35,562 bases of DNA from Prochlorococcus sp. AG-424-A03 (GTDB taxonomy: Bacteria; Cyanobacteriota; Cyanobacteriia; PCC-6307; Cyanobiaceae): NCBI GenBank assembly GCA_003213375.1, contig QCNA01000012.1, forward strand, positions 1 to 35,562, given 5' to 3'. Positions 912 through 33,545 of the stretch are shown piece after piece. Position numbers and translations under genes: made by a program. A model generated the notes under the pieces. It ran no database searches and was not told where the DNA came from. It was given only the letters and a program-made list of their open reading frames with translations. Position 1 is the stretch's first letter, and the number at the start of each line of letters is the position of its first letter.

Positions 912-1535
912 TTATGTAAGTTCTCCTTCCAAAATTACTCTTCTTATTGTTGACAATGCAATTCCTGTTTGTGATCTGATTGATCGATAAGAATATCCTT
1001 CATTACGCAATCTGATTACTAAAGATTCTTTTAGAGGACTTATTTTGGGCCTTCCTCCCAAATTATTTCCAGATAATTTTCTGCGTAATAGTTGTTCTTT
1101 TTTTCTTTCACCTAAACTTTTGTCTTCTAAATTATCTAATTCATATAAAATCTTAAAAATTGAAGAATTTGTATTAGAAGATTCATTAGAAGCAAAAAAA
1201 CCAGTCAAAGTTCGCAATTGAATATCCTTATTAATAAGTTTATTTATTGTTATCAAACATTCTTTTTTATTTTTAAATGCTCGATCAAGCTGAGTGATTA
1301 TTAATTGATCGCCTTTTGATAAGGAATTTATAGCTTTATTGAGTTGGGGTTTGATTTCTTCATCTAAACTTATAAATTCAGAGAATACTAAACTGCATCC
1401 CTCTTCCTTCAAAATTTTTATTTGCTCTTCTAAATATTCATATTCGTTATGAGTAGCTCTAGCATAACCTATTGCTTTAGAGTTTTTACTTTTTTCCGAT
1501 AATAAAATACGTTTTCTTTTAAATTTAAAAGTCAA
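912..1535 (-). CDS. Degenerate serine recombinase (resolvase/invertase family) with C-terminal HTH
   Basis: The N-terminal half matches the resolvase catalytic fold: IGYARAT at residues 22-28, GDQLIITQLDRA in the middle, and a long dimerisation-type helix with GERKKEQLLRR. Next comes GGRPK and a Hin-like helix-turn-helix (YSYRSIRSQTGIALSTIRR). In active enzymes the YAR motif is followed by the nucleophilic serine; here that position is Thr28. Positions that are usually arginine in the RP and LDRxxR motifs read as lysine (KPQL, LDRAFK). It may therefore be inactive or work only as a DNA-binding protein. The chosen start is TTG at 1535: no in-frame ATG precedes the catalytic domain. No inverted repeats or recombination sites were seen beside it. 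Confidence 0.75.
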   Translation of the reverse strand: MTFKFKRKRILLSEKSKNSKAIGYARATHNEYEYLEEQIKILKEEGCSLVFSEFISLDEEIKPQLNKAINSLSKGDQLIITQLDRAFKNKKECLITINKLINKDIQLRTLTGFFASNESSNTNSSIFKILYELDNLEDKSLGERKKEQLLRRKLSGNNLGGRPKISPLKESLVIRLRNEGYSYRSIRSQTGIALSTIRRVILEGELT

Positions 1536-22746: not shown

Positions 22747-24300
22747 TTACTTTTTTAATATTAATTTCCATGGATTTAAAACATCATTTTCGTATATCAC
22801 TTCATAAGAATTATCATTATCTTTTATTGTTTTATGGTCAGTTGTCCATGCCAATTCAGATTTTTTTAACTGATTAATACTTTCTAATCCCCTACCTAAT
22901 TTGGGAGTTGATAAAGAAATCCTTATGATTTTTGATTGCGATCGAGAGTTGTTGATTCCTTTTTTATCTACCATGATTGTTTGATTTTTTACTAAATCAA
23001 GGGATGCAACATATTCCATTTTCTCTCTTAGTTCTCTTGATCTATCAGTGAATAAACCTGATTGCAAAATAAATGAAGTGAATAAGTAAGGCCCAATTAT
23101 GAGAGTTATTAATATTTCTTTGAACGAATTTTTATGTTTTATTAATGACCAAGATAAGCCGAAAGATAATAATCCAAGGATTATAAAGGTATTTTCCCTT
23201 GTATTAAAGTTAACTAAATCTTTAAAGAAAAAATAATATGTGAAAGTTAAAGCAAATATAAATAATGGAATTATTTTTGAAGTCATAAATATAAAAAATC
23301 GACTGTATTTATAAGAATTGAATAAATACTTTATTCCTACATATGTATTTAATGAAAAAATAGATGAGATTTGTAGAGTATAGTAGGGTGTTTTTGTAGA
23401 GAAAATGCTTAGTGTCGCTACTAAAATTAAGGGGAAAAAAGCAAGTATATATTTATTCTCTTTACTTTGAAAAATATTGTATGTTGTGCCAATAATTGCA
23501 AAAAAACTCCATGGCAGAAATGTTACCGGTACATTCCAGAAATAATAATAGAAAGGATTTGTAAAAGTATTTTTATTTGATAGAAAGTTAAACTTTTCAA
23601 CTAAGTAAAAAATAATATTTTTATCTAAATAAGGGTTGAGAGAAAACGTCCAGAATAAAAAAGGAATAAATCCAATGATTAGTCCTAACCAAAAGAATTT
23701 GATGAATAAAAAATTTTTTTTAAAAAAAATATATGGTATTAGTGATAATAACGGTACAAAAACTAAAAAAGTTTTCATCATAAAAGCTAAACCAATCCAA
23801 ATTCCAAAAAGCAGAATATAGAATTTGTTATTTTTACTTTTTATTTTGACTAAAGCTAATACTCCAACAGTTACTAAACATGAATAAATAATATCTTGAG
23901 TGGCTAAGTGTGAGTAGTCAAACCATATGTATGTAGTAGCAAGGATTAGTGGAGATATAATTGCATTTTTTTTATTAAATAATTCTTCATGTAATTTATA
24001 GGTCGTAAATAGCATCAATATTGATGCGACTGTTGTTGGTAGATATGCAGAAAAAATATTTCTTCCAAATAAGTCTTGTGACTTTGCAATTAAAAACTGT
24101 AATCCGATTGTTCTATCTAAAGCATATTCATCCCACCATAATGGAATTGTCCAGTTACCTTTTTCTAATATCCATCTAGCTTGTAGTGCATAAAAACCTT
24201 CATCAAACGCAATGTAACTTCTTTTGCCAAAATAAAAAATAAGAGGAATAAAAACAAATAATTTAAAGAGATATCTAAATTTTAAAATTTTATTAACCAT
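22747..24300 (-). CDS. Family 39-type (ArnT/PMT-like) membrane glycosyltransferase
   Basis: 517 residues with many hydrophobic stretches, about ten likely membrane helices. The extracytoplasmic acidic motif near the start (AFDEGFYALQARWI, D33-E34) is the family's catalytic signature, and WWDEYALDRTIGL and SHLATQDIIYS match further family loops. The C-terminal part (about 430-517) is hydrophilic. These enzymes move a sugar from a polyprenyl-phosphate carrier to a lipid or protein at the outer face of the inner membrane. The gene starts 18 bases downstream of the tRNA-Thr 3' end and precedes the GT2 gene by 41 bases, so the two probably form one operon. Confidence 0.87.
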   Translation of the reverse strand: MVNKILKFRYLFKLFVFIPLIFYFGKRSYIAFDEGFYALQARWILEKGNWTIPLWWDEYALDRTIGLQFLIAKSQDLFGRNIFSAYLPTTVASILMLFTTYKLHEELFNKKNAIISPLILATTYIWFDYSHLATQDIIYSCLVTVGVLALVKIKSKNNKFYILLFGIWIGLAFMMKTFLVFVPLLSLIPYIFFKKNFLFIKFFWLGLIIGFIPFLFWTFSLNPYLDKNIIFYLVEKFNFLSNKNTFTNPFYYYFWNVPVTFLPWSFFAIIGTTYNIFQSKENKYILAFFPLILVATLSIFSTKTPYYTLQISSIFSLNTYVGIKYLFNSYKYSRFFIFMTSKIIPLFIFALTFTYYFFFKDLVNFNTRENTFIILGLLSFGLSWSLIKHKNSFKEILITLIIGPYLFTSFILQSGLFTDRSRELREKMEYVASLDLVKNQTIMVDKKGINNSRSQSKIIRISLSTPKLGRGLESINQLKKSELAWTTDHKTIKDNDNSYEVIYENDVLNPWKLILKK

Positions 24301-31547: not shown

Positions 31548-32261
31548 TTGGATTCACAAACTCAAATGAAACAAGTAGTTGCTGATGCAGCAATAAGGGA
31601 AGTAAAGAGTGACATGATTCTTGGATTAGGTTCTGGATCTACAGCTGCGTTAATGATAAAAAGCCTTGCGGATGAAATTCGTTCTGGAAAACTCCAAAAT
31701 ATAAGAGGTGTTGCAACTTCTTTTCAATCAGAAGTTTTAGCTCTTGAACTGGATATCCCGCTTATCGATTTAGCTTCTGTATCTCAAATTGATCTAGCTA
31801 TTGATGGAGCAGATGAAGTTGATCCAGGATTTCAATTAATAAAAGGAGGAGGAGCATGCCATGTTAGGGAAAAGTTAGTAGCATCTAAAGCTAATCAGTT
31901 ATTGATTGTTGTTGATGAAACTAAACTCGTACAAAATCTAAATCAATCTTTCCCTTTACCTGTAGAAGTTCTTCCAAATGCTTGGAAGCAAGTTCAGGAA
32001 GTCATTTCAGAAATGAATGGCAGTTCTTCTTTAAGAATGGCTATTAAAAAAGCTGGCCCAGTTGTTACTGACCAAGGCAATCTCATCCTAGATGTATTAT
32101 TTAAGGATGGTATTAATAATCCAAAAGACATTGAAATGAAGATTAATAATATTCCTGGAGTATTAGAAAATGGATTATTTGTTGATCTTACAGACAAAGT
32201 ATTAGTTGGTAAAATTGAAGATAACATTCCGAGGGTTTACTCACCCTCAAGAGCTTGCTAA
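31548..32261 (+). CDS. rpiA: Ribose-5-phosphate isomerase A
   Basis: Interconverts ribose 5-phosphate and ribulose 5-phosphate in the Calvin cycle and pentose phosphate pathway. 237 residues. Motifs: [13 protein letters not shown] (phosphate loop), [11 protein letters not shown] (active-site acids), [16 protein letters not shown] and PVEVLPNAW. Start is TTG at 31548, giving MDSQTQMKQ, as in related cyanobacterial proteins; an in-frame ATG 18 bases later would remove only six residues. Its stop overlaps that of the convergent hisD by 4 bases, the same arrangement as at 698-701. Confidence 0.97.
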
Positions 32262-33545
32262 TCTTCAAATCTTATTTCTACAGAGCTAGCATGGCTATGT
32301 AAGCCTTCACTTTTAGCAAGATTAATAATATCGAGGCTATTAACTTTTAAACTTTCTTCATTAAATTCTATTATTGAGGTATTTTTCATAAAAGTTTCAA
32401 CCCCTAAAGAACCGCTAAATCTAGAATTTCCTGACGTAGGTAAAGTATGATTTGGTCCAGCAAGATAATCTCCAACGGCTTCTGGAGTCCATTTTCCTAA
32501 AAATATCGCTCCTGCATTTTCAATACTTGCAAGAATCTTTTTTGAATCTATCGTAAGGATTTCTAAATGTTCAGGGGCAAAGTTATTGCTTAATTCGACA
32601 CATGATTCGTAATTCTCGCAAATCACAATTAAACCCCAATTTTTTATTGATTGCATGCAAATTTCTTTTCTTGGATGATCATCTATTTTTTTTATAAAGT
32701 TCTTCCAAAACTTCTTTTGCCTGGTTCTTTGATGTAGTTAAAAGTATTGATGAAGCTAAAGGATCATGTTCTGCTTGCGCTAGTAGATCAGATGCAATAT
32801 GAGTACTCTGAGCTGTTTCATCTGCAATGATTAATATTTCACTTGGACCAGCTAAAGAATCAATCCCTGTAGAGCCATAAATGAGTTTTTTCGCAGTCGT
32901 AACATAAATATTCCCTGGACCTGAAATAACATCAACTTTATTGATTTGATTTGTGCCAAATGCTAAAGCACCAATTGCTTGAGCTCCTCCAATTCTAAAT
33001 ACTTTATTGATCCCTGATAAGTGAGCTGCAGCTAAAACAGTTTTGTTTATTTCCCCTTCTTTATTCCCGGGAGATACCATTATAATATCTTCTACTCCTG
33101 CTACTTTTGCAGGTATAGCATTCATCAATACTGTACTTGGATAAGCAGCTCTACCTCCAGGAATATAAATACCTGCATTTTTAACTGGTCTCCATCTTCT
33201 TTGAACGATATCACCATATTCACCTTTTATAGTGAAAGATTGAGGAATTTCTTTTTCATGGAATTTTTGAATTCTTTCATGAGCTACCACAAGTGATTGC
33301 TTCAAATTGTTATCGATTTCATCCCATGCATTTTTTATTTGATCCGCACTAACTTGCATAGGGTTAGGGTCGAAACCATCAAATTTTTTTGTATATTTTT
33401 CTACCGCTATATCTCCAGAAATTTTTACATCTTGAATAATTTCTTCAACAATTTTACTTATCTTATTATTGTTTTCTGAATTAGTTCGAGTAGAAATCCT
33501 TTTTAATTCTTCAATAGCCTCTTTTTTTTTATTTATGATCTTCAT
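32258..33545 (-). pseudogene. hisD: Histidinol dehydrogenase, split by a +1 frameshift at an A8 run
   Basis: HisD makes histidine from histidinol in two NAD-dependent steps. One frame (from ATG 33545) carries GGRAAYPSTVLM, VISGPGNIYVTTAKK, DSLAGPSEILI and LLAQAEHDP (zinc-binding Gln and His), then stops at 32679. A second frame continues with [10 protein letters not shown] (catalytic Glu-His), [17 protein letters not shown] and [11 protein letters not shown]. Deleting one A from the run of eight at 32686-32693 joins them into about 428 residues, the normal length, reading [14 protein letters not shown] across the join. Every expected catalytic residue is present. It could be a real recent mutation, an assembly error or a gene rescued by slippage. 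In every case the identity is hisD. Confidence 0.93.
32686..32693 (-). other. A8 homopolymer at the hisD frameshift
   Basis: Eight T on the plus strand, read as eight A in hisD (TTTAT then A8 then TAG). Seven A would keep the hisD frame. It is the only point in the gene where a single change restores the full-length protein. Confidence 0.9.

What the first reader, a model, noticed from the sequence alone, without database searches (positions are those of the whole stretch)
32258..33545. hisD split by a single extra A in an A8 run while all catalytic residues survive
The two frames together encode a normal-length HisD, and no other damage is visible in either half, so the break is either very recent, artificial or tolerated. 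A run of eight A is a known place for RNA polymerase or ribosome slippage, which could restore a fraction of full-length protein. A true loss would make this cell a histidine auxotroph, which would be surprising in a free-living photoautotroph. The homopolymer makes a sequencing error equally plausible.
Basis: partly seen in the sequence, partly recalled or inferred. Interest (0 to 1): 0.75.

Follow-up and report, generated by a model that had tools for sequence, protein, structure and literature searches.

The report
Probably spurious extra A in hisD
A gene for making histidine looks broken in this draft genome of an ocean cyanobacterium, but the same draft also breaks genes that no such cell could live without, so the extra letter is most likely an amplification, sequencing or assembly error rather than biology.

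Summary
In detail: on the minus strand hisD (33545 to 32258) is split by a run of eight A (T8 at 32686-32693); both halves are HisD and nothing else in the gene is damaged. The window lies in a fragmentary Prochlorococcus draft, G000 (57 contigs, 64.5% complete), probably a single-cell genome. Of 110 relative loci examined, 109 read one hisD frame across codons 270-300 (the last is cut by its locus end); none has eight A, 89 have seven. The change is private, not a conserved slippage site. In the 71% of G000 examined, the draft also has single-base frame breaks in glyS (G run), chlD (C run), lpxD and three other genes. A photosynthetic cell without glyS and chlD could not live, so at least some of these breaks must be errors, and hisD shows the same kind of change, about 3 kb from a contig end. 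Slippage rescue is unlikely: undoing an insertion needs the rarer slippage directions. Limits: reads were not available; the number of breaks exceeds that in 80 relative loci (p = 0.03) but not significantly that in one closed isolate (p = 0.72), so the case rests on which genes are broken. Verdict: most likely an artefact; low interest.

The parts
32679..33545 (-). N-terminal frame of hisD, 288 aa as read, the last residues out of frame after the A8
32686..32693 (-). run of eight A (T8 on the + strand); seven A in 89 of the 109 relative loci counted, eight in none
32258..32656 (-). C-terminal frame of hisD, 132 aa from its first ATG; homology to HisD begins upstream of this ATG, near the run
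33522..33530 (-). second, in-frame A run (nine A) near the start of hisD, harmless as it stands

Best explanation
hisD is an ordinary Prochlorococcus histidinol dehydrogenase gene, and the eighth A is a false insertion that arose while DNA of (probably) a single cell was amplified, sequenced and assembled. Shown: the insertion is private to this assembly, and the same assembly has other single-base frame breaks, two of them in genes that a photosynthetic cell cannot do without. Inferred: that this particular insertion is one of the errors, and that the draft is a single-cell genome. Which step made it (amplification, low read depth near a contig end, or assembly) cannot be told here.
For: Of 110 relative loci none has A8; 109 read one frame across codons 270-300 and L089 is cut by its locus end at codon 294. 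In 775,753 bases of G000 compared with 1.2 Mb of closed G012, 6 of 507 gene alignments have interior frame breaks: hisD, glyS (G3 to G4), chlD (C run +1), lpxD (A7 to A8), R1_739626 (A7 to A8), an AhpC/TSA-like gene (names); a seventh, R1_740682, has a +1 and a -1. glyS in G000 is 507 + 217 aa, chlD is split at profile positions 290/278 while 19 of 24 genus relatives have one full-length frame. The 80 relative loci have 0 breaks in 444 gene alignments (Fisher p = 0.03). hisD is broken in only 3 of the 212 genus genomes with a match, all three incomplete drafts. For one single-cell workflow used on Prochlorococcus 3.0 indels per 100 kb are stated (passage of PMC6122165); G000 shows about 1.9 (9 events in 463 kb).
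Against: No reads were available. Against the closed isolate G022 (2 of 313) the number of breaks in G000 (6 of 507) is not significantly higher (p = 0.72). The 80 relative loci, most of them single-cell drafts by title, have 0 breaks where the stated benchmark rate would give about 13, so single-cell drafts are usually cleaner than that rate; PMC5519541 also says P. marinus single-cell assemblies tended to have the fewest indels (passage). Long A/T runs are not miscalled in general: 101 of 101 coding runs of eight or more agree with G012. No inverted joins were found in G000. That G000 is a single-cell genome is inferred from its size, fragmentation and completeness.
Confidence: 0.86

Rival explanations
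1. A real, very recent replication-slippage mutation in this one cell (or its near kin), making it a histidine auxotroph or a doomed mutant, while some of the other breaks are errors.
For: A7 runs are mutable; the gene is otherwise intact, as expected of a fresh mutation. The closed isolate G022 also has one A7 to A6 difference inside a gene, so such changes need not be errors.
Against: Fresh lethal frameshifts should be rare in a random cell (inference). At least glyS and chlD cannot be truly broken, so the assembly does make this kind of error. A mutator cell is not indicated: the mutS frame is open as far as the contig goes.
Confidence: 0.1
2. The A8 is real and tolerated, because slippage of RNA polymerase or ribosome on the run restores a fraction of full-length HisD.
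For: Frameshifts in homopolymer tracts of otherwise intact genes occur in Blochmannia and are thought to be rescued (passages of PMC3017870). Frame-shifting indels in an 8A repeat of a laboratory gene were bypassed (passages of PMC3812077).
Against: No relative shares the A8. Rescue needs a one-base transcript deletion, a two-base insertion or a +1 ribosomal shift; in Buchnera 151 of 157 transcription insertions but only 16 of 57 deletions lay in homopolymer tracts, 80% of insertions added a single base, and no restored reading frame was detected (passages of PMC5574713). A-run slippage would not explain the G4 in glyS, although PMC3812077 reports bypass at some short and G/C repeats (abstract and passages).
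Confidence: 0.03

Closest known systems
hisD, histidinol dehydrogenase (TIGR00069, PF00815) of Prochlorococcus
   Same: Gene order around it, length, and protein sequence (95% identity to closed G012 in the first half)
   Different: One extra A in a seven-A run
Indel errors of single-cell or other draft assemblies
   Same: Private single-base indels in genes that must be intact, in an incomplete and fragmentary draft
   Different: Reads not seen, so the error itself is not shown; relatives of the same kind are cleaner
Poly-A frameshifts with presumed transcriptional slippage in Blochmannia and Buchnera (passages)
   Same: AT-rich genome, frameshift in an A run of an otherwise intact gene
   Different: Not conserved between relatives; free-living cell with no known relaxation; shorter run (the Blochmannia paper counts tracts of nine or more)

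Membership tests
HisD (TIGR00069 / PF00815) | Profile match over the whole enzyme | tested here: met
   Two frames together cover TIGR00069 1-254 and 266-393; neither alone is complete
HisD (TIGR00069 / PF00815) | One open frame | tested here: not met
   Frame changes at the A8
Conserved slippage-dependent frameshift gene | The frameshift is kept in relatives | tested here: not met
   0 of 110 relative loci with eight A
Conserved slippage-dependent frameshift gene | Full-length product from mixed transcripts | not testable with these tools
   No RNA or protein data
Draft-assembly indel error | Same kind of break in other indispensable genes of the same assembly | tested here: met
   glyS and chlD
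Draft-assembly indel error | More breaks than in comparable sequence | tested here: inconclusive
   6 of 507 against 0 of 444 in 80 relative loci (p = 0.03) but against 2 of 313 in closed G022 (p = 0.72)
Draft-assembly indel error | Raw reads disagree with the assembly | not testable with these tools
   No reads available

The most novel reading that the evidence does not exclude
The A8 is real, and the cell lives by slippage at several homopolymer frame breaks (hisD, lpxD, chlD, glyS): a free-living cyanobacterium tolerating frameshifts as insect endosymbionts are thought to.
Probability: 0.03. Interest if true: 0.6.

Novelty: not a real feature. Interest (0 to 1): 0.07.

Why it matters
Mainly as a caution: private single-base breaks in indispensable genes of incomplete Prochlorococcus drafts should not be read as auxotrophy or slippage without the reads. 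If it were real, it would extend presumed slippage rescue from endosymbionts to one of the most abundant free-living phototrophs.

Tried and rejected
Phage-borne copy: no match in the phage collection in near mode. A second, intact hisD: none found, but the assembly is 64.5% complete. Conserved slippage site: rejected by relatives. Decay of the his pathway: hisG, hisB and one hisA/hisF-type gene are open; only one strong hisA/hisF-type match was found, which an incomplete draft does not allow me to interpret; the other his genes were not looked for. Mutator by loss of mutS: its 774-aa frame is open up to about the contig end, the N-terminal part lying beyond it (contig end inferred from the locus length); mutL was not looked for. 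General miscalling of long A/T runs: rejected (101 of 101). Inverted joins typical of amplification chimeras in G000: none found against the held part of G012. G079 as draft control: dropped, because it is only 83% identical to G012 and its listed breaks mix alignment noise with possible real ones, among them a +1 well inside R1_550624. Breaks in the first 12% or last 10% of predicted ORFs were left out because predicted starts may be too long; this dropped R1_77767, R1_87692, R1_425441, R2_398112 and the first indel of R1_740682 of the list for G000. In-frame stops listed were not counted as breaks either: those lie near gene ends, except in R2_189595 (76% identical, near its start), and the two stop-only rows are short ORFs of 381 and 387 nt. 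Papers on Prochlorococcus with slippage, homopolymer frameshift or histidine auxotrophy (search listings only; PMC3812077 and PMC5009743 of the listing were opened for passages) gave nothing on this case in what I saw.

Full report
What is there. The window is G000:C12:1-35562 of a Prochlorococcus draft (the genus is named by the record titles of its relatives). On the minus strand hisD runs from 33545 to 32258. A run of eight A in the sense strand (32693-32686) shifts the frame, so the first frame ends after 288 aa and the rest of the enzyme is read in another frame. Both frames match histidinol dehydrogenase over adjoining parts of the profile. From recall, the metal ligands and the catalytic Glu-His pair are divided between the two halves, so neither alone should be active; this was not tested.

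Is the run length normal? Among 110 relative loci from two collections (some genomes are probably held twice), 109 read one frame across codons 270-300; the last, L089, is cut by its locus end at codon 294. In the 109 the longest A run near the site is seven in 89 and four to six in 20; L089 has seven. None has eight. So the eighth A is private to G000. The gene is not decaying: 18 synonymous and 6 nonsynonymous codon differences from L033 before the run, 17 and 1 after it. Genus-wide, 212 of 266 genomes have a hisD match and 3 of them show it in two pieces, G000, G214 and G259, all incomplete drafts.

Is G000 a reliable sequence? It is 64.46% complete and in 57 contigs. I compared 775,753 bases of it (71%) with 1.2 Mb of the closed genome G012. 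By a filter that ignores the first 12% and last 10% of each predicted gene, 6 of 507 gene alignments have frame breaks: hisD, glyS (G3 to G4), chlD (C run, +1), lpxD (A7 to A8), R1_739626 (A7 to A8; no family match for the 226 aa searched) and an AhpC/TSA-like gene with two +1 changes and one +3 (names). A seventh gene, R1_740682, has a +1 and a -1 and no family match. In glyS the two frames are 507 and 217 aa; G012 and G022 have three G there. chlD is split in G000 at profile positions 290/278; of the 24 genus relatives searched, 19 have one full-length frame and 5 show only a partial or ChlI-like match.

Why this points to error. The beta subunit of glycyl-tRNA synthetase and subunit D of Mg-chelatase are indispensable to a chlorophyll-bearing cell (established knowledge of the pathways), and no second copy was found in G000. 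The assembly therefore cannot be true at all these places. hisD has the same kind of change as lpxD and R1_739626. Three of the six broken genes lie near a contig end: AhpC-like 1.9 kb, chlD 2.6 kb, hisD 2.9 kb if C12 ends with the window (contig order bounds it to at most about 3.7 kb), where 18% of the sampled bases lie within 4 kb of an end (p = 0.07). This hints at low depth but does not show it. For one single-cell workflow used on Prochlorococcus, Berube et al. 2018 state 3.0 indels per 100 kb (passage read, PMC6122165); G000 shows about 1.9 (nine single-base events in 463 kb). That G000 comes from such a workflow is inferred.

Results against this reading. The 80 relative loci have 0 breaks in 444 gene alignments, where the benchmark would give about 13; they sample few gene families and were found through hisD, but they show that drafts are usually cleaner. 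PMC5519541 says P. marinus single-cell assemblies tended to have the fewest indels (passage read). The closed isolate G022 has 2 of 313, not significantly fewer than G000 (p = 0.72); one of these two is a short stretch with several indels in a gene I take, from recall, for purC. So the argument rests on which genes are broken, not on the rate. Long A/T runs are not miscalled in general: 101 of 101 coding runs of eight or more agree with G012, and 2 of 214 runs of seven are longer by one (the hisD run was not counted there because its flank differs).

Slippage. An extra base can be undone by a one-base transcript deletion, a two-base insertion or a +1 ribosomal shift. In PMC5574713 transcription insertions prevail in homopolymer runs and are mostly of one base, deletions mostly lie elsewhere, and no restored reading frame was seen (passages). 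Against this, indels in an 8A repeat of a laboratory gene were bypassed (passages of PMC3812077), and Blochmannia genes with such frameshifts are thought to be rescued (passages of PMC3017870). In the G012 stretches 374 of 1086 mechanical ORFs hold a sense A run of eight or more, so such runs are ordinary here. With no relative sharing the A8, there is no sign that it is used.

Verdict. An artefact is the best-supported reading, about 0.86; a real private mutation about 0.1; slippage rescue about 0.03.

Noticed in passing
L140 (G264:C36, contig start): A hisD fragment is joined in one open frame directly to rpoB, which in the window lies nearby on the opposite strand: it looks like an inverted amplification chimera in another draft.
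   Followed up: partly
G000 contig C1, about 38.9-44.8 kb (L205, L217): Three neighbouring genes (lpxD, R1_739626, R1_740682) carry four single-base homopolymer changes within 6 kb; a local patch of poor sequence or real decay.
   Followed up: partly
L136 (G259:C6) and L139 (G214:C35): Two other incomplete genus drafts have hisD in two frames, at different places from G000.
   Followed up: partly
G024 (genus genome, one contig, 90% complete): glyS gives two matches, so one-contig status does not rule out frame breaks.
   Followed up: no
window 912-1535 (-): A serine-recombinase-like protein with a Resolvase N-terminal domain, PF00239, 207 aa; no match in the 1.2 Mb of G012 held, as for its neighbours at that end of the window, so nothing follows from the absence.
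   Followed up: no
window 22747-24300 (-): A 517-aa membrane-type protein with only 41% identity to its best match in the held part of G012, at a different place, while the genes on either side are 93-97% identical and collinear: probably a variable gene inserted here.
   Followed up: no
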